A DNA stretch of 64,000 nt from Cupriavidus sp. AU9028 (GTDB lineage Bacteria; Pseudomonadota; Gammaproteobacteria; Burkholderiales; Burkholderiaceae), in assembly GCF_019795295.1 (NCBI RefSeq), contig NZ_JAIMCG010000008.1, positions 168,364 through 232,363 of the forward strand. Reading direction: 5' to 3'. Position 1 is the first letter of the stretch. The number at the start of each line of letters is the position of its first letter. Of this stretch, positions 39,502 through 47,632 are shown in pieces. The notes beneath the pieces are model-generated. The model was not told the DNA's origin and ran no database searches. It saw only the letters and a program-made list of their open reading frames with translations. Position numbers and translations under genes: made by a program.

Positions 39502-39628
39502 GGCGCGATTCTATCACCGCGGCCCCTTTCGGCCCCCAGCGCGGGTGCGGGTTTCCCCCTGACCTCGCGCGGCGGAAGCCTGGCGCCCTTGTGGCAAAAT
39601 GCCCGGCTTTCGACCGACTGTTTTTCCG

Positions 39629-41986
39629 ATGTCCAACCTGCCCGCACCCGTCCTGCAAAAGATCGTTTCGCTGATCGCGGCCGAACTGTCCGTGCAACCC
39701 CGCCAGGTCGCGGCGGCCGTCGAGCTGCTCGACGAAGGCGCAACCGTTCCCTTCATTGCCCGCTACCGCAAGGAGGCGACGGGCAACCTCGACGACACCC
39801 AGCTGCGCACGCTGGAAGAACGCCTGCTGTACCTGCGCGAGATGGAGGAGCGCCGCGCGGCGATCCTGGCGTCGATCGAGGAACAAGGCAAGCTGACCGA
39901 CGAACTGCGCACGGCAATCGAACAGGCGGTCACGAAGCAGACGCTCGAGGACCTGTATCTGCCGTACAAGCCGAAGCGCCGCACCCGTGCACAAATCGCA
40001 CGCGAGTGCGGACTCGAGCCCCTGGCGCAGGCGCTGCTGACCGATCCGTCGCTGGACCCGCAGGCCGAAGCGGCCAGGTACGTCAATGGCAAGCCCACGG
40101 CCGACGGCGGCGTGCCGGACGTCAAGGCCGCGCTGGACGGCGCGCGCGACATCCTCTCGGAACAGTTCGGCGAGACCGCCGAGCTGCTGGGCAAGCTGCG
40201 CGACCACCTGTGGAACCAGGGCGTGCTCAGCTCCAGCGTGATGGAAGGCAAGGAAGGCGCGGAGGAAGAGAAGTTCCGCGACTACTACAACTACAGCGAG
40301 ACGATCCGCACCATCCCGTCGCACCGTGCGCTCGCCCTGTTCCGGGGGCGCAATGCCGGCGTGCTGCTGGTCAAGCTGGGACTGGGCGAAGAGCAGGACG
40401 CGCTGGTGCCGCATCCCTGCGAGGTGATGATTGCCGAGCATGTCGGCATCCGCAACCAGAATCGTCCGGCCGACAAATGGCTGGGCGATGTCTGCCGCTG
40501 GTGCTGGCGCGTCAAGGTGCAGCCGCACCTGGAAACCGAACTGCTGACCCGTCTGCGCGAGACCGCGGAAGGCGAAGCGATCAAGATCTTCGGCCGCAAC
40601 CTGCATGAACTGCTGCTGGCCGCCCCCGCTGGCCCGAAGGCCGTGATGGGCATCGATCCCGGCATTCGCACGGGCTGCAAGGTGGCGGTGGTCGATGCCA
40701 CCGGCAAGCTGCTGGAAACCGCCACCATCTACCCGCATGAACCGCGCCGCGACTGGAACGGCTCCCTGGCAACGCTGGCGCGGCTGGCCAGGCAGCATGG
40801 CGTGGCGCTGGTGTCGATCGGCAACGGCACCGCCAGCCGCGAGACCGACCGGCTGGTGCAGGACCTGATGCGGCAGGCGCCAGAGCTGAAGCTGACCAAG
40901 ATCGTGGTCAGCGAGGCTGGCGCGTCGGTGTACTCGGCGTCGGAACTGGCTGCCAAGGAATTTCCGGAACTGGACGTCTCGCTGCGCGGCGCCGTCTCCA
41001 TCGCGCGCCGCCTGCAGGATCCGCTGGCCGAACTGGTCAAGATCGATCCCAAGTCGATCGGCGTGGGCCAGTATCAGCACGACGTCAACCAGCGCGAGCT
41101 GGCGCGCACCCTCGACGCCGTGGTCGAGGACTGCGTGAATGCGGTGGGCGTCGACGTCAACACCGCTTCGGTGCCGCTGCTGGCGCGCGTGTCGGGGCTG
41201 AACAGCGTGCTCGCGCGCAATATCGTCGAATACCGCGATGCCAATGGCGCCTTCGGCAACCGCAATGCGCTGAAGAAGGTGCCTCGGCTGGGCGACAAGA
41301 CCTTCGAGCAGGCCGCCGGCTTCCTGCGCATCAATGACGGCGACAATCCGCTGGACCGCTCCTCGGTGCACCCGGAAGCGTATCCGGTGGTGCAGCGCAT
41401 TCTCGACCATATCCGCAAGGACCTGCGCGAGGTGATGGGCAACCGAGACGCGCTGCGCGGGCTGAGCCCCAACCAGTTCACCGACGAGACCTTCGGCCTG
41501 CCCACCGTGCGCGACATTCTGGCCGAGCTGGAAAAGCCCGGCCGCGATCCGCGTCCGGAGTTCAAGACCGCCACCTTCCAGGACGGCGTCGAGGATATCA
41601 AGGACCTGCAGCCCGGCATGATCCTGGAAGGAGTGGTGACCAACGTCGCCGCGTTCGGCGCCTTCGTCGACATCGGCGTGCATCAGGATGGACTGGTGCA
41701 TATCTCGGCCCTGTCGAACAAGTTCATCAAGGATGCGCACGAGGTGGTCAAGGCGGGCCAGATCGTCAAGGTCAAGGTCATGGAAGTGGATGTGAAGCGC
41801 AATCGGATCGGTCTGTCGATGCGGCTGGACGACGAGCCCGGACAGCAAGGCGGCCGGCCGCAGGGCGGGGAGCGCGGCGAACGTTCCGACCGCGGCGGCC
41901 AGCGCGGCCGTGGCGCGCCTGCGGGCCGCCGCGACGCGGAGCCGGCCGGCGCCATGGCGGCGGCGTTCGCCAAGCTCAAGCGCTGA
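39629..41986 (+). CDS. tex: Transcription accessory protein Tex
   Basis: Tex is a cytoplasmic RNA/DNA-binding protein that affects transcription and toxin expression. The 785-residue product has the N-terminal helical Tex region ([11 protein letters not shown]), a YqgF/RNase H-like domain ([20 protein letters not shown]), helix-hairpin-helix motifs around 495-560, and a C-terminal S1 RNA-binding domain (about 650-720; [20 protein letters not shown]). A Gly/Arg-rich tail follows S1. The ATG at 39629 is chosen as the start nearest the conserved N-terminus. Confidence 0.96.
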
Positions 41987-42069
41987 GCGCTGCCCTGCCC
42001 CGCCGTGCACGAGTACGGCGGGACCAGGGTCGGGTGCGATACCCGGCTGTCCGCCTCGGCTGGCACCGT

Positions 42070-43272
42070 TCAGAAGGTCGACGCCAGCTGCAGCCACAGA
42101 CTGCCGCGATGCCCGGCGAACGCGCGAGGCATACGCAACGGCCAGCCGAGCGACAACTCCAGATGCAGGGCGGCGGCGCCTGCCCGAGGCCATCGGCCCC
42201 TGACGCCCACGCCTGCGCCTGCGAGAGTGCGGCCCGGCAAGGCCGCCGCCGCCGGTCCCCAGACATGACCGACGTCGGCACCCGCGACCCACTGGACCGC
42301 CCCTTGCCAGGCGGGGATGGTCAGTTCATTGCTGACGGCCCAGCCGTTCTCCGCTGCCAGCACATGGCGCCCACCGAAGCCCCGTACCGTCTGCCGGTCG
42401 CCAATCGAAAAGTGGCTGGATGGCTGGGCGGCGCCATGCGTCATCGTTCTCTGCAACAGCAAGGCGGTGTCGACACGAAACGGCCGTTGCAGCGCGGGCA
42501 TCCCGCTCGCCAGCGCGCCCAGCGCCGCCCGCAGCCGCACCACCGGTGCGGCACGGCACGCCTGCGGCATCGCCCAGGGGTCATGCCGGCTGCCATGTCC
42601 TCCCGGCAGGTCAGCCATCCAGCTGGCGTCCAGCGTTGCTGCCAGTTGCCGGCCGGCATGGCGGTGCTGCAAGCCCACCGTCCATCCAGCCGTGCGCAGA
42701 CGTTGCACGTCCAGATCTACCCCGTCGATCGACCCTGCCGCCTGCCGGCGAAACAGTCCCGCGCGCATCGTCAGGCTCTGGTCGCCTCGCATCACCTCGT
42801 GGCCGATCTCGGCCTGCATGTCGGTGCCGTGCCAGCGCCAGTCCAGGCGCGCCTGCCCGATCGCCAGGGCACGCCGCAGTTGCGAGCGCCGCGCGCCAAA
42901 GGCGAGACGCCAGTCGCCCAGCGATAGTCGGTAGTGGGCCGCGGCGGCTCTGGCCAGACCCATGCCCCGATCCACCTGGCCGCCCGCGACAGCGGACAGC
43001 GTCAGCGTGTCCCGCAGGTGCAGCGGCGCATCGAAGGCGGTCTGGAAGACGAGCTGGCCACCCTCGCGCCATCCCGCGTCGCCGTTGCTCGCCGCGATGG
43101 TGGCATGCCACCGTTTGCCGGCGCCCTGCGCTGCGACTGGGGCGCCGTCCGGCGTCCGGTCGGCAGCAGCCGGTATCGGCATACCCGCGCAGATCAGTAC
43201 GACAAGGACTGCCATGGCGCGATGACACCGCCTCCCGGCAACCGCCCGCGATGACTGGCGGGACTGCCTCAT
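42070..43272 (-). CDS. Two-partner secretion transporter (TpsB/ShlB-like) lacking POTRA domains
   Basis: The 400-residue product has a signal peptide (AMAVLVVLICAGMPIPAAAD) and then goes within about 15 residues into the beta-barrel part of a ShlB/FhaC-type transporter. The family's secretion motif is seen as SIGDRQTVRGFGG (VRGF at 296-299), with the C-terminal strand LWLQLASTF ending in Phe. Ordinary TpsB proteins have about 550-590 residues with two POTRA domains before the barrel; no such region fits here. It is downstream of, and overlaps by 4 bp, the tpsA gene it probably serves. Confidence 0.8.
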   Translation of the reverse strand: MRQSRQSSRAVAGRRCHRAMAVLVVLICAGMPIPAAADRTPDGAPVAAQGAGKRWHATIAASNGDAGWREGGQLVFQTAFDAPLHLRDTLTLSAVAGGQVDRGMGLARAAAAHYRLSLGDWRLAFGARRSQLRRALAIGQARLDWRWHGTDMQAEIGHEVMRGDQSLTMRAGLFRRQAAGSIDGVDLDVQRLRTAGWTVGLQHRHAGRQLAATLDASWMADLPGGHGSRHDPWAMPQACRAAPVVRLRAALGALASGMPALQRPFRVDTALLLQRTMTHGAAQPSSHFSIGDRQTVRGFGGRHVLAAENGWAVSNELTIPAWQGAVQWVAGADVGHVWGPAAAALPGRTLAGAGVGVRGRWPRAGAAALHLELSLGWPLRMPRAFAGHRGSLWLQLASTF

Positions 43273-45599
43273 GGCCGGCTTCCGCCAGCATCCTCCGCTG
43301 CACGGCCAGCACGCCCGGGGCCGATACGCAATTGCACGCCCTCGCCCGCCAGCAGTTGCCCATCGTCGTTGTTCAGCGCCGCCGTGCGCAGCTGCAGCAC
43401 CTTGCCCGCGTGCAAGCGCCCCCCGGCATTGTCGATGGCAACCGTGGCCCCCGCGGTGGCGTCGCCGCCGACGTCCATCCCGCCGTGCCGATTGGACAGC
43501 GTTCCCACGTCGATGAAGGCGTTCCCCGCCGCGGTCATGGCGCCGTCGTCGTTGGCAACCCTGCCCGCCTTGAGCTCCAGGTCTCGCCCCGACAGCAGGA
43601 TGCCCTTGCCGTTGCCGATCACCGTGGCATGCAGCCGCACGTCGCCGCCGGCGGCAAGCCGGCCCCCGTCGTTGTTCAGCAGCGGCTCCCCGCGGGTTTC
43701 CGCGTGGACGGATTCGACCGCTTCGATCTGGCCCGCGCGGTTGTCCACCAGCCCGCCGAAGACGGCAAGGGACCTCGCATGCAGCTTGCCGCCGCGGTTG
43801 TCGAGGGAGATGCCGGCGGGTTCGAGCAGCACGTCCTCGCCCCGGATCCGTCCGCCCCGGTTGTCAATGGCGCCGCCGTGCATCCACAGCGGCCCGCCAG
43901 CTTCGACCGTGCCCTCGTCGTTGTCGACCGTGCCGTGCAGCGCGACCGATCCGCGCGGCACGGCTACGCGGCCGCCGCGGTTGCGCAGCCTCGGCGCCCA
44001 GGAGTCGAGGCCCGCGCCGGCCAGCAGCGAGCCGCCGCGGTTGTCGATCTCGCTGGCCGACTGCAGGGTCAGCGCCGCCGTCGATTCGATCCTGCCGCCG
44101 CCATTCAAGAGCCGCTGCCCCCGGATCGTTGCATCGCCAGCGCGCGAGACGATCGAACCCCGGTCGTTATCGAGAGCGTGGCCGGCGGCGATGGCGACCG
44201 TGCCACCTTCGATCCGTCCCTGCGCGTTGTTCACCTGCGTGGCCGCGCGCAGCGTCGCCACGCCGCCCGCCCGGATCGATCCCCCCGCCAGGTCCAGCGT
44301 CGTGCCGCTCAGTTCGACATCGCCACTGGCGTCGATGGTGCCGCTGGACTGCAGTTGCTGCGCGGCCCGGAGAACTGCCCGTCGGGGCGGCAACGGCGGA
44401 CCTGCCTCGGCGTCCGCCGGCATGCCGGCGGCCAGCGTTCCCCGGTTCGCGATCTGCGCGCCGTCGATCAACAGCGTGCCGCCCGCTGTCACGTTGCCGC
44501 TATTGCGCACGGCGCCTTCCCGGCAGTGCGCAGCCAGCTCGATAGCGTCCCGCGCCTGTAGCCTTCCGTCATTGGTCACGTCCGCCGCGTCGAGGTGGAT
44601 GGCCCCCGCCGAACGCAGCTCGGCCGCAGCGCCAATTTCCACCTTGCCCTGGCTGTCGACATCGAGATCGCCTGCCGCCGCGAAGGCGCGCCCGGCCAGC
44701 CGGATGCCGCTGCCGCGCTCCGTCGCAGCCAGCCGCAGACCCTGCGCCTGCACCACGGCGGCAGGGCCGAGCGCGATACCGGTGGCCGGCGCATCGCCTT
44801 CACCAAGCTGGGGGGTCGCGGACGGATCGCCGGCAGGCGCGAGCGGCCCGGGATAGGCGATGGTATTGGCGCCGGCCACCGCATGTATCCGGCCGCCCTG
44901 TATCCGTCCCTGGACGTCGATGGCGCGGGCGAGCAGATCGACGCGCGCCTCGGTCGCCTCCAGTCCCGCTGCGCCGATCTCGATCGTGCCGCGCCGTACG
45001 TCGAAGCCATTGGGGTTGCCGTCCCCGTCGAACAGTGGCGTGCCGGTCGCCAGCACGAAGCGGCCCGAGTGCAGCGCGCCGCAACCGGAGCAGACGATCC
45101 CGGCAGGATTGGCGACGACCACGGCGGCGGGATATCCGGCCACTTCGTGCATGCCTTGCAAGCGGGAGGCCGCGCCGCCAATGACCTGCTGCACGATGAT
45201 CCCGGCATGGCGGTTGCCGAGCATCGGGTTGCCGGCCACACGTCCGGCCAGCACCGTGCCGGTTCCCATGCCGCTGTTGACGAGTACGACGCCCGCGGGG
45301 CCGATATCGTAGGTCGTGAACCGGTTGATGCTGGTACCGCCGTCCCGCGAGGGCGGCACGATATGCACGATGGCCGTGCCTCCCGGGGGCGCGGCAACGA
45401 AGGGATGCGGCCCCGGCGCACGGTGATCGACCTGGATGGCTGGCTGTGCGGCAGCGCTTGCGGTGAACGACAGCACCGCACAGGCCAGCCAGCGACATGG
45501 CGCTCGGGTGCGCGCCGCCTTGCGCGGGACCGCGCCGACGGGATCCGGCTGATGGGATGCCGTTGGCAACGACGTCCGTGAAGGGCAAAGATCGGTCAT
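43269..45599 (-). CDS. Two-partner secretion exoprotein (TpsA, filamentous haemagglutinin type), short
   Basis: The 776-residue product has a long N-terminal signal region with hydrophobic ACAVLSFTASAAAQ, then a TPS domain showing NRFTTYDIGPAGVVLVNSG, VANPAGIVCSGCGALHSGRF and GFDVRRGTIEIGAAGLEA. The remainder is a beta-helix of FHA repeats of the pattern IDNRGG-x-L (many copies between about 300 and 740). No C-terminal toxin domain is present and it ends soon after the repeats. The stop overlaps the tpsB start (43269-43272, ATGA). The start is the ATG at 45599, not another in-frame ATG 57 bp upstream. Confidence 0.85.
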   Translation of the reverse strand: MTDLCPSRTSLPTASHQPDPVGAVPRKAARTRAPCRWLACAVLSFTASAAAQPAIQVDHRAPGPHPFVAAPPGGTAIVHIVPPSRDGGTSINRFTTYDIGPAGVVLVNSGMGTGTVLAGRVAGNPMLGNRHAGIIVQQVIGGAASRLQGMHEVAGYPAAVVVANPAGIVCSGCGALHSGRFVLATGTPLFDGDGNPNGFDVRRGTIEIGAAGLEATEARVDLLARAIDVQGRIQGGRIHAVAGANTIAYPGPLAPAGDPSATPQLGEGDAPATGIALGPAAVVQAQGLRLAATERGSGIRLAGRAFAAAGDLDVDSQGKVEIGAAAELRSAGAIHLDAADVTNDGRLQARDAIELAAHCREGAVRNSGNVTAGGTLLIDGAQIANRGTLAAGMPADAEAGPPLPPRRAVLRAAQQLQSSGTIDASGDVELSGTTLDLAGGSIRAGGVATLRAATQVNNAQGRIEGGTVAIAAGHALDNDRGSIVSRAGDATIRGQRLLNGGGRIESTAALTLQSASEIDNRGGSLLAGAGLDSWAPRLRNRGGRVAVPRGSVALHGTVDNDEGTVEAGGPLWMHGGAIDNRGGRIRGEDVLLEPAGISLDNRGGKLHARSLAVFGGLVDNRAGQIEAVESVHAETRGEPLLNNDGGRLAAGGDVRLHATVIGNGKGILLSGRDLELKAGRVANDDGAMTAAGNAFIDVGTLSNRHGGMDVGGDATAGATVAIDNAGGRLHAGKVLQLRTAALNNDDGQLLAGEGVQLRIGPGRAGRAAEDAGGSRP

Positions 45600-45733
45600 G
45601 GCGGCTCCCGCGAAGGACAGCGATGGAAAGAGTTCCACCAGCCTACGCAGGGCCACCGGCTCGCGACATCAGAGCATTCCGAAATTCCCCTGCAGGGGTC
45701 GGCAAGGGCGCCCCGCGCAGGGCGCCCTTGCGC

Positions 45734-47632
45734 TCAGATCTCGACCTTGGTGCCCAGCTCCACCACCCGGTTTGCCGGGATCTGGAAGAAGTCGGACGGC
45801 TTGGCACCGTTCTGATGCATCCACGCAAACAGCGCTTCGCGCCAGATCGGCATACCGGGAATCCGCGACGGGATCACCGATTCGCGCGCGATGAAGAACG
45901 AGGTCTCCATCAGCTCGAACACCATGTCGAGCTTGCGGCGCGACAGGTCCAGCACCTTGTGGACGTCCGGCGTCTCCTTGAAGCCGTACTCCGACTTCAG
46001 GATGAAGACGCCATCGCCGAGGCTCTTGCAGCTGAGACGACGATCGTCGTCGACATACGGAATGTCGCGGGTGACGAAATTGAGGAAGACGACCCGTTCG
46101 TGCAGCACCCGGTTGTGCTTCAGGTTGTGGAGCAGCGACACCGGCACGAATTCGGTATTGCCGGTCAGGAACACCGCCGTGCCTTCCACACGGTGCGGTG
46201 GATGGGCGAGCAGGCCGGCCATGAACGGTTCGAGCGGAATGCCCTCCTCCAGGCTGCGCGCGCGCAGCAGCTTGCGCCCGCCATACCATGTCATCAGCAG
46301 GAAGAACGCGACGCTGCCCAGCAGCAGCGGGAACCAGCCCCCTTCCGCCACCTTCAGCAGGTTGGCCGAGAAGAAGGACAGGTCGATCACCAGGAACGCG
46401 GCGCCGGCGATGCCCACCAGCAGCGGCGGCCAGCGCCACAGGAAGCGCATCACCACGATGGCGAGCAGCGTCGTGATCACCATGGTGGTGGTCACGGCGA
46501 TGCCGTAAGCGGCTGCCAGGTTCTCCGACTTGCGGAAGGCAAGCACCACCATGATGACCATGGCGAGCAGCGCCCAGTTGATCACCGGCAGGTAGATCTG
46601 CCCGATCTCGGCTTCCGAGGTGTAGCGGATGCGCATGCGCGGCAGGAAGCCCAGCTGGATCGCCTGGCTCGTCAACGAGAACGCACCCGAGATCACCGCC
46701 TGCGAGGCGATCACCGCCGCGCAGGTGGCCAGCACCACCATCGGAATCAGCAGCGGCTCGGGCACCATCAGATAGAACGGGTTACGCGCCGCGTCCGGGT
46801 TGCCAAGCAGGGAGGCGCCCTGGCCGAAGTAGTTCAGCATCAGGCAGGGCATCACGATGGCGAACCAGGACACGCGGATCGGCCTGGGGCCGAAGTGCCC
46901 CATGTCGATGTACAGCGCCTCGGCGCCCGTCAGCACCAGGAAGACCGCGCCCAGCACGATGAAGGCCTGCAGCGAATGCTCGACCAGAAAGCGCACGCCA
47001 TACAGCGGATTGACCGCCGCGAGGATCGCCGGCGATTGCACCAGGTGATAGATGCCCAGTGCCCCCAGTGAGATGAACCACAGCAGCATGATCGGGCCGA
47101 ACAGCTTGCCCATGCTCGAGGTGCCGCGCCGCTGCAGCAGGAACAGCACCAGCAGGATGGCCAGGGACATCGGTATCACATAGTGCGACAGCGCGGGGGT
47201 CGCGATCTCGATCCCCTCGACCGCGGACAGTACCGAAATGGCCGGCGTGATCACCGCATCGCCGTAGAACATGCAGGCGCCGAAGATGCCCAGCATCATC
47301 AGCACCTTCGCCCGTCGGGAACGCGGCGAGGCCGTACGCAGCGCCAGTGCCATCAGGGCCAGCACGCCGCCTTCGCCGTCGTTGTCGGCTCGCATCACGA
47401 AGACGACGTACTTGATCGACACGACCAGGATCATCGCCCAGAACAGCAGCGAGATCACGCCGGTCACCGCTTCCGGGCTGAAGGGAATGCCGTGCTCGGC
47501 GCTGAAGCACTCCTTGAGTGCGTACAGTGGACTGGTGCCGATGTCGCCAAAGACGACACCAATCGCCGACAGCACCAGTGCCCGTGTGCCCGGCGTCTCG
47601 ACGAAGTAGTGACTCGTGGTGGGTTGGGTCAT
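45734..47632 (-). CDS. kup: Kup-type potassium uptake protein
   Basis: This 632-residue low-affinity K+/H+ symporter of the inner membrane has about 12 transmembrane helices in the first 430 residues and a cytoplasmic C-terminal domain of about 190. Family signatures: [18 protein letters not shown] near the N-terminus and [20 protein letters not shown]. The ATG at 47632 begins TQPTTSHYF before the first helix. The 313-bp gap upstream (47633-47945) shows no further gene or clear signal. Confidence 0.95.

What the first reader, a model, noticed from the sequence alone, without database searches (positions are those of the whole stretch)
42070..45599. Compact two-partner secretion pair with a POTRA-less transporter
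The TpsB-like barrel has a signal peptide but no room for the two POTRA domains that recognise the TPS domain. The exoprotein is short, lacks a toxin tip, and its gene precedes and overlaps the transporter gene by 4 bp. This could be a reduced secretion system with a different recognition mode, or a decaying locus.
Basis: partly seen in the sequence, partly recalled or inferred. Interest (0 to 1): 0.75.

Follow-up and report, generated by a model that had tools for sequence, protein, structure and literature searches.

The report
Secretion pair whose transporter lacks its receptor
A Cupriavidus-like bacterium carries a small two-gene export system whose outer-membrane channel has lost the whole periplasmic part that normally catches its cargo; it is either an unusual stripped-down secretion pair or one on its way out, and a simple secretion test could tell.

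Summary
Window 42070-43272(-) encodes 400 aa: signal peptide, about 12 residues, then a TpsB-type (ShlB/FhaC) barrel. No TpsB-type POTRA/H1 region lies in six frames of the window (best 0.8 bits; 173-262 bits in six of six relatives that hold the region). The 776-aa exoprotein has an intact Bcp/CDI-type TPS domain and haemagglutinin repeats, no recognised toxin, and overlaps the barrel gene by ATGA. Of the best 80 related loci (of 348), 78 have 150 or more residues before the barrel; the other two are broken full-length genes. The barrel keeps the L6 VRGF/beta13 Asp core, but 15 of 46 conserved sites are changed, mostly near its N-terminus, among them the beta1 DxxG Asp. It scores like intact TpsBs of equal profile distance, yet has the longest branch of 96. 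No second example was found in the surveys made, and related exoprotein loci in the genus are often broken. Best reading: a real, reduced Bcp-like two-partner pair, possibly secreting without POTRA recognition (0.43); decay is the close rival (0.40).

The parts
42070..43272 (-). tpsB-like gene, 400 aa: signal peptide + TpsB-type barrel, no H1/linker/POTRA1/POTRA2
43162..43272 (-). signal peptide of the barrel protein (residues 1-37, cleavage after AAA inferred by eye)
   Evidence: sequence
42073..43125 (-). barrel region (residues 50-400); the alignment it heads matches CdiB 6wil 217-560 of 560
42376..42387 (-). L6 motif VRGF (residues 296-299), kept
42268..42282 (-). beta13 GxDxG motif GADVG (residues 331-335), kept
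43072..43089 (-). beta1 region SNGDAG (residues 62-67) where the TpsB DxxG motif should be; Asp replaced
43269..43272 (-). ATGA overlap of exoprotein stop and barrel start
43269..45599 (-). tpsA-like exoprotein gene, 776 aa
45447..45599 (-). signal peptide of exoprotein (residues 1-51, cleavage inferred by eye)
   Evidence: sequence
44634..45374 (-). TPS domain (Pfam residues 76-322), NPAGI and CSGCG motifs as in Bcp/CDI-type relatives
43335..44627 (-). filamentous-haemagglutinin repeat stretch; limits (about residues 325-755) by eye, best Pfam stretch 615-693
39599..41986 (+). tex, flank
45734..47632 (-). kup-type potassium transporter, flank

Best explanation
A reduced Burkholderia-type (bcpA...bcpB-like) two-partner secretion pair, sitting as a compact unit between tex and kup. 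Shown: both ORFs are intact and share ATGA; the barrel protein has a strong signal peptide and a TpsB-type barrel with the L6/beta13 core; H1, linker and both POTRAs are gone; the exoprotein keeps a canonical TPS domain and repeats but not the long shaft of its full-length relatives, and no gene fits between the two. Inferred: the barrel is exported, inserted by BAM and still passes the exoprotein; the unfolded N-terminal hairpin of the TPS domain docks directly on the beta1-beta16 seam and L6 of the barrel rather than on POTRA2, threads out, and the short beta-helix folds on the surface as an adhesin-like fibre. In FhaC, peptides of the substrate N-terminus and of POTRA2 bound the transporter itself (PMC9355242, passages), which makes direct docking conceivable.
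For: No TpsB-type POTRA relic in six frames against 173-262 bits in six of six relatives that hold the region. Own genome: one ShlB barrel, one TPS domain; POTRA_3 nowhere above cut-off; POTRA_2 above cut-off only once, in an 807-codon frame on another contig, not identified further. The loss falls at domain boundaries: signal peptide, about 12 residues, then beta1. V, R, G, F of L6 and the beta13 Asp are invariant in 75 of 75 relatives and 20 of 20 controls and are kept; the beta1 DxxG Asp (74 of 75; 18 of 20) is lost, and of the two barrel residues that in CdiB meet POTRA2 the beta7 Lys/Arg (65 of 75; 20 of 20) is lost. H1 and DxxG are described as present together in TpsB and absent together in BamA/TamA (PMC7644211, passages); here both are gone. 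Barrel profile score 181 bits, 4th of 21 with 20 TpsBs whose matches include the POTRA region; 15 of 46 conserved positions changed (19 controls 15-18; the closest, L205, 4). ATGA overlap. TPS domain 43-48% identical to the 13 best genus matches, motifs kept. Sam50 is reported to work with its single POTRA removed (cited in PMC4104836, passage).
Against: One genome only. The barrel-proximal POTRA is held essential in studied Omp85/TpsB proteins (PMC5422565, passages). Longest end branch of 96 (2.18; median 0.15; letter make-up flagged); barrel more diverged than TPS domain (32-34% against 44-46%); among 76 barrels the lowest hydropathy agreement (0.578; next 0.628, rest 0.676-0.761) and highest share of changed conserved sites (11 of 39) (which mends an ordering fault). 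The other POTRA2-contact residue, the beta6 Arg, is kept, and most changed sites have no known tie to POTRA or H1. GC3-GC2 contrast is low (0.21). Exoprotein frames of this type are short (418-650 codons) in 5 of the 13 best genus matches, and G007, G002 and G076 hold stubs. No structure model could be made.
Confidence: 0.43

Rival explanations
1. A non-functional, decaying Bcp-type locus: deletions removed the exoprotein's shaft and everything between the genes and the transporter's POTRA part; the two remaining ORFs are open only because the losses are recent.
For: Stubs of the same exoprotein type in G007 (1853-aa frame running over a barrel remnant with no signal peptide), G002 (631-aa stub; no transporter match in that genome) and G076 (frame broken); short frames in 5 of 13 best TPS matches; long branch and lost conserved sites; no orthologue; POTRA2 essential elsewhere (PMC5422565, passages).
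Against: No stop or frameshift in 1176 codons; loss falls at domain boundaries with signal peptide intact; the ATGA junction would be a coincidence; L6/beta13 are kept; barrel scores no worse than intact TpsBs of other subfamilies at equal profile distance.
Confidence: 0.4
2. The exoprotein is still exported, but recognition is supplied in trans by the POTRAs of BamA or by a periplasmic adaptor.
For: TPS domain keeps the same motifs as relatives that use POTRA-bearing transporters; a POTRA_2 match lies in an 807-codon frame of the genome, the size of BamA (size recalled).
Against: beta7 POTRA2-contact Lys/Arg is lost in the barrel, though the beta6 Arg is kept; TpsB pairs are described as not using a channel that involves BamA (PMC5422565, passage); no TpsB-type POTRA_3 above cut-off in the 94.6% complete genome.
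Confidence: 0.08
3. The barrel has left two-partner secretion and serves as a pore or insertase of its own, as suggested for 'noNterm' Omp85 proteins; the exoprotein neighbour is a relic.
For: POTRA-less Omp85 barrels exist (PMC4104836 section 10; chloroplast Toc75-IV and OEP80tr, PMC4195282 passages); DxxG lost, as in BamA/TamA (PMC7644211 passages).
Against: It overlaps a TPS-domain gene with intact motifs; by sequence it is TpsB-type, matching CdiB and FhaC.
Confidence: 0.09

Closest known systems
Burkholderia-type CDI/two-partner system bcpAIOB (BcpA-BcpB), described in Burkholderia, Ralstonia and Cupriavidus (PMC3415462, passages)
   Same: A-then-B gene order; TPS domain 44-46% and barrel 32-34% identical to seven Bcp-like loci of the genus; barrel groups with Cupriavidus/Ralstonia/Bordetella petrii/Chitiniphilus TpsBs (96/94). 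That the genus loci are Bcp is inferred from order and kinship; bcpI/bcpO were not checked in them
   Different: No room for bcpI or bcpO; no toxin tip recognised; exoprotein 776 aa, against open frames of 1816-3148 codons in 8 of the 13 best genus matches; transporter without H1, linker, POTRA1, POTRA2
FhaC/CdiB TpsB transporters (PDB 4ql0, 6wil, 6wim)
   Same: Barrel region covering CdiB 217-560 by profile; VRGF on L6 and Asp on beta13
   Different: No POTRA, H1 or linker; DxxG Asp replaced; beta7 Lys/Arg that contacts POTRA2 lost
'noNterm' Omp85 proteins (Heinz and Lithgow 2014, PMC4104836, section 10 read)
   Same: Omp85-superfamily barrel with nothing before it
   Different: Those resemble Omp85-metalloprotease barrels; the paper found no further domain profile with the TpsB-type barrel among 12,869 superfamily sequences
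POTRA-less chloroplast Omp85 (Toc75-IV, OEP80tr; PMC4195282, passages)
   Same: Barrel-only relatives of POTRA-bearing transporters
   Different: Plant organelle; not known to be paired with an exoprotein gene (recalled)

Membership tests
Two-partner secretion (type Vb) TpsA | N-terminal signal peptide and TPS domain | tested here: met
   Pfam TPS 2e-36, NCBIfam adhes_NPXG; NPAGI/CSGCG as in relatives; signal peptide judged by eye
Two-partner secretion (type Vb) TpsA | Beta-helical repeats after the TPS domain | tested here: met
   Fil_haemagg, TIGR01731
TpsB transporter | ShlB/FhaC-type barrel | tested here: met
   PF03865 2.4e-35, profile 11-311 of 311; profile of the barrel alignment headed by this protein matches CdiB over 6-347 of 347 positions. 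Strand count not modelled
TpsB transporter | Two POTRA domains before the barrel | tested here: not met
TpsB transporter | N-terminal H1 helix and linker | tested here: not met
   49 residues before the barrel, 37 of them signal peptide; 218-285 in 13 relatives
TpsB transporter | L6 (V/I)RG(F/Y) and beta13 (F/G)xDxG | tested here: met
TpsB transporter | beta1 DxxG | tested here: not met
   S at the Asp column (D in 74 of 75 relatives); a 2-residue alignment ambiguity there leaves the Gly unsure
TpsB transporter | Secretes its partner exoprotein | not testable with these tools
   needs an assay
bcpAIOB (Burkholderia-type CDI) | bcpI and bcpO between A and B, toxin tip on A | tested here: not met
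   genes overlap by 4 bp; no toxin domain by Pfam/NCBIfam
noNterm Omp85 | Omp85/metalloprotease-type barrel without N-terminal domain | tested here: not met
   barrel is TpsB-type: PF03865 123 bits against Omp85 PF01103 17.8 bits, below its cut-off of 24

The most novel reading that the evidence does not exclude
A TpsB-type barrel that translocates its TPS-domain partner with no POTRA, H1 or linker at all: the TPS hairpin docks straight on the barrel seam. That would show the barrel plus L6 is the minimal two-partner secretion machine and that POTRA recognition is dispensable when only one short substrate has to be served.
Probability: 0.4. Interest if true: 0.85.

Novelty: new variant of a known kind. 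Interest (0 to 1): 0.6.

Why it matters
How TpsB proteins pick and move their cargo without an outside energy source is unsettled, and POTRAs are assigned both recognition and hand-over. A natural barrel-only TpsB, still joined to a TPS-domain gene, is a ready-made minimal case. A 2014 survey of 12,869 Omp85/TpsB sequences reported no further domain profile with the TpsB-type barrel (PMC4104836, section 10). Searches of the held open-access library for 'lacking POTRA' or 'without POTRA' with TpsB, and 'POTRA-less' with two-partner secretion listed four papers; none names a bacterial POTRA-less TpsB in title or in the part of the abstract shown, and I read passages of one of the four (PMC4195282, which calls POTRA-less Omp85 unique to chloroplasts).

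Tried and rejected
Frameshifted POTRA: six-frame profile search of the window, none. Upstream in-frame extension of the barrel ORF (197 open codons): no start codon, non-coding codon-position GC, inside the exoprotein's frame. Sequencing-error truncation: the other short TpsBs inspected either hold POTRA sequence before a frameshift, stop or contig-edge split (L074, L116, L184, L185) or are a barrel remnant without signal peptide (G007, L041). Not inspected: partial matches in G010, G021, G056, G562, G737, G948. Second TpsB in the genome: none, but the assembly is 94.6% complete. Promoter/terminator scan: nothing. Repeats: no pair flanking the two genes was evident; the larger direct-repeat families lie inside the exoprotein gene. 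One search failed by a script fault and was redone; one search ordered its rows wrongly because of one undefined value and was redone. Rows dropped: 5 of the 80 loci (L074, L116, L109, L102, L114: broken, cut or mis-started); 54 rows (53 relatives) went into A4, which was never used because the predictor was off. Survey limits: searches scored at most 3-4 candidates per genome, and the listing shows only its best rows; the samples overlap.
Full report
What is there. On the minus strand, 43269-45599 encodes a 776-aa exoprotein and 42070-43272 a 400-aa barrel protein; stop and start share ATGA. The exoprotein has a signal peptide, a TPS domain (Pfam 2e-36) and filamentous-haemagglutinin repeats; no toxin domain is recognised. 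The barrel protein matches ShlB (2.4e-35, positions 11-311 of 311) and no POTRA model. The profile of the barrel alignment that it heads matches CdiB 217-560 of 560; alone it matches CdiB 240-524 (3e-15) and FhaC weakly.

The missing part is really missing. In 13 full-length relatives 218-285 residues precede the barrel; here 49 do, of which 37 are a signal peptide. The frame upstream of the ATG is open for 197 codons but has no start codon and non-coding GC (0.87/0.77/0.51), while the exoprotein frame looks coding as far as scanned, codon 700 of 776. A profile of the H1-POTRA region from 75 relatives scores at most 0.8 bits anywhere in six frames of the window. Of nine further loci searched, six score high: L036 and L037, intact, 216 and 206 bits (L037 is the gene L044 of the profile); L116, L074, L184 and L185, stopped, frameshifted or split, 173-262 bits. 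Three give nothing above 8 bits: L041 (remnant) and the own-genome loci L033 and L130, so the profile sees TpsB-type regions only. Pfam POTRA_2 and POTRA_3 over the whole own genome give no match in the window at E <= 10. The signal peptide is unlikely to be a chance frame (1 of 2005 starts, itself, reaches its score).

Kin. In the first 60 genomes 28, own included, have a barrel match, the best-scoring relative at 33%; in 398 family genomes 97, own included, match at E <= 1e-20, the highest listed identity being 38%. The best-scoring relatives are transporters of A-then-B loci. Of the 13 best TPS matches in the genus (43-48%), 8 lie in frames of 1816-3148 codons and 5 in frames of 418-650. 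For seven of these loci the window's TPS domain is 44-46% and its barrel 32-34% identical, while they share 69-95% and 66-98% with each other. In a tree of 96 barrels the window is sister (96/94) to Cupriavidus, Ralstonia, Bordetella petrii and Chitiniphilus TpsBs, on the longest end branch (2.18; median 0.15), with unusual make-up, so its exact place is unsure.

Is it alone? Of 348 related loci the best 80 were kept; 78 have 150 or more residues before the barrel, and the other two, L074 and L116, carry POTRA sequence with a frameshift or stop. With a full-length TpsB profile of 573 positions the window matches 232-573. In 60 genus genomes (49 with a match, own included) no other match runs from about 230 to the end without a piece of the missing part beside it; G007 (310-573), G010, G021, G079 and G062 give partial or split matches, besides some weak short ones. 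In 300 order genomes (66 with a match at E <= 1e-20) and 369 class genomes (19 at E <= 1e-30) none was listed; the nearest, G350 (294-572), is a broken full-length gene, while G056 (404-573, at a contig start) and G562 (354-573) were not inspected. In 398 family genomes 235 match at E <= 1e-30; the rows listed all start at position 38 or before, but lower rows were not listed, so this survey is partial. At most 3-4 candidates per genome were scored.

Function or decay? For function: intact ORFs, overlap, domain-boundary loss, and a kept gate core (VRGF; beta13 Asp). The beta1 DxxG Asp (74 of 75 relatives, 18 of 20 controls) is gone; of the two barrel residues that touch POTRA2 in CdiB, the beta7 Lys/Arg (65 of 75; 20 of 20) is gone and the beta6 Arg (74 of 75; 20 of 20) is kept (roles from PMC7644211 passages; mapped by counting in the alignment). 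Of 46 sites conserved in at least 90% of 75 relatives, 15 are changed: 9 of 14 at residues 62-162 and 6 of 32 at 190-382, so change is heaviest in the part of the barrel next to the missing domains, where alignment is also least sure. Ten L6 columns were part of the search pattern that found the relatives, so their invariance there is biased; the 20 controls, found otherwise, also keep V, R, G and F. Against these 20 TpsBs, whose matches include the POTRA region, the window scores 181 bits (4th of 21) and changes 15 of 46 sites (19 controls 15-18; L205 4); its hydropathy agreement, 0.579, lies above 15 and below 5 of them. So it is not visibly more eroded than intact TpsBs of other subfamilies at equal profile distance. 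For decay: among its 75 nearest relatives it is the most divergent, with the lowest hydropathy agreement (0.578; next 0.628, rest 0.676-0.761) and 11 of 39 conserved sites changed, though L061 has 15 of 55; GC3-GC2 contrast is low (0.21 against 0.43 in tex, 0.27 in the exoprotein); and loci of this type are stubs in G007, G002 and G076. The time of POTRA loss cannot be dated without closer kin.

Place. In 18 regions around tex of relatives, tex and kup matches lie 52-295 bp apart in 6 (G033, G031:C30, G019, G068, G066, G004) and 2.2-5.6 kb apart in 6; in the other 6 no full kup match was listed in the stretch fetched. None of the 18 shows a match of more than 60 residues to either gene of the pair. 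The pair was therefore most likely gained here as cargo; the donor is unknown.

Mechanism. Shown: architecture. Inferred: Sec export of both, BAM insertion of the barrel, direct docking of the TPS hairpin on the barrel seam. In FhaC, peptides of the substrate's N-terminal hairpin and of POTRA2 bound the transporter (PMC9355242, passages), and Sam50 is reported to work without its POTRA (PMC4104836, passage). Against: the barrel-proximal POTRA is called essential in Omp85 proteins (PMC5422565, passages). I give POTRA-free secretion 0.43 and decay 0.40 (0.45 and 0.38 before the withdrawn claim named under Tried and rejected).

Novelty. The TpsB membership test fails on POTRA, H1 and DxxG, so the claim is 'TpsB-type barrel that may work like a TpsB', a new variant. 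A 2014 survey found no further domain profile with the TpsB-type barrel (PMC4104836, section 10), and searches listed no bacterial case in the held library.

Noticed in passing
L154:2847-4997(+) and L157:5902-8193(-): In two close relatives (G065, G031:C7) the tex-kup gap holds a 716/763-aa protein with a weak F-box-like match (E 0.0024 and 0.043, below Pfam's cut-off), unusual in a bacterium.
   Followed up: partly
tex-kup intergenic region, window 41987-45733: This gap looks like a cargo hotspot in the genus: 52-295 bp in 6 of 18 regions, 2.2-5.6 kb in 6 others.
   Followed up: partly
L041:2385-8380 (G007): Exoprotein frame of 1853 aa that runs over a barrel remnant 81% identical to residues 304-571 of the G016 transporter: a decayed locus.
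   Followed up: partly
L172:5799-7694(-) (G002): 631-aa stub of a related exoprotein in a genome where no TpsB match was found.
   Followed up: partly
L046, L047 (Ralstonia sp. ASV6): Two near-identical related transporter genes about 30 kb apart on one contig.
   Followed up: no
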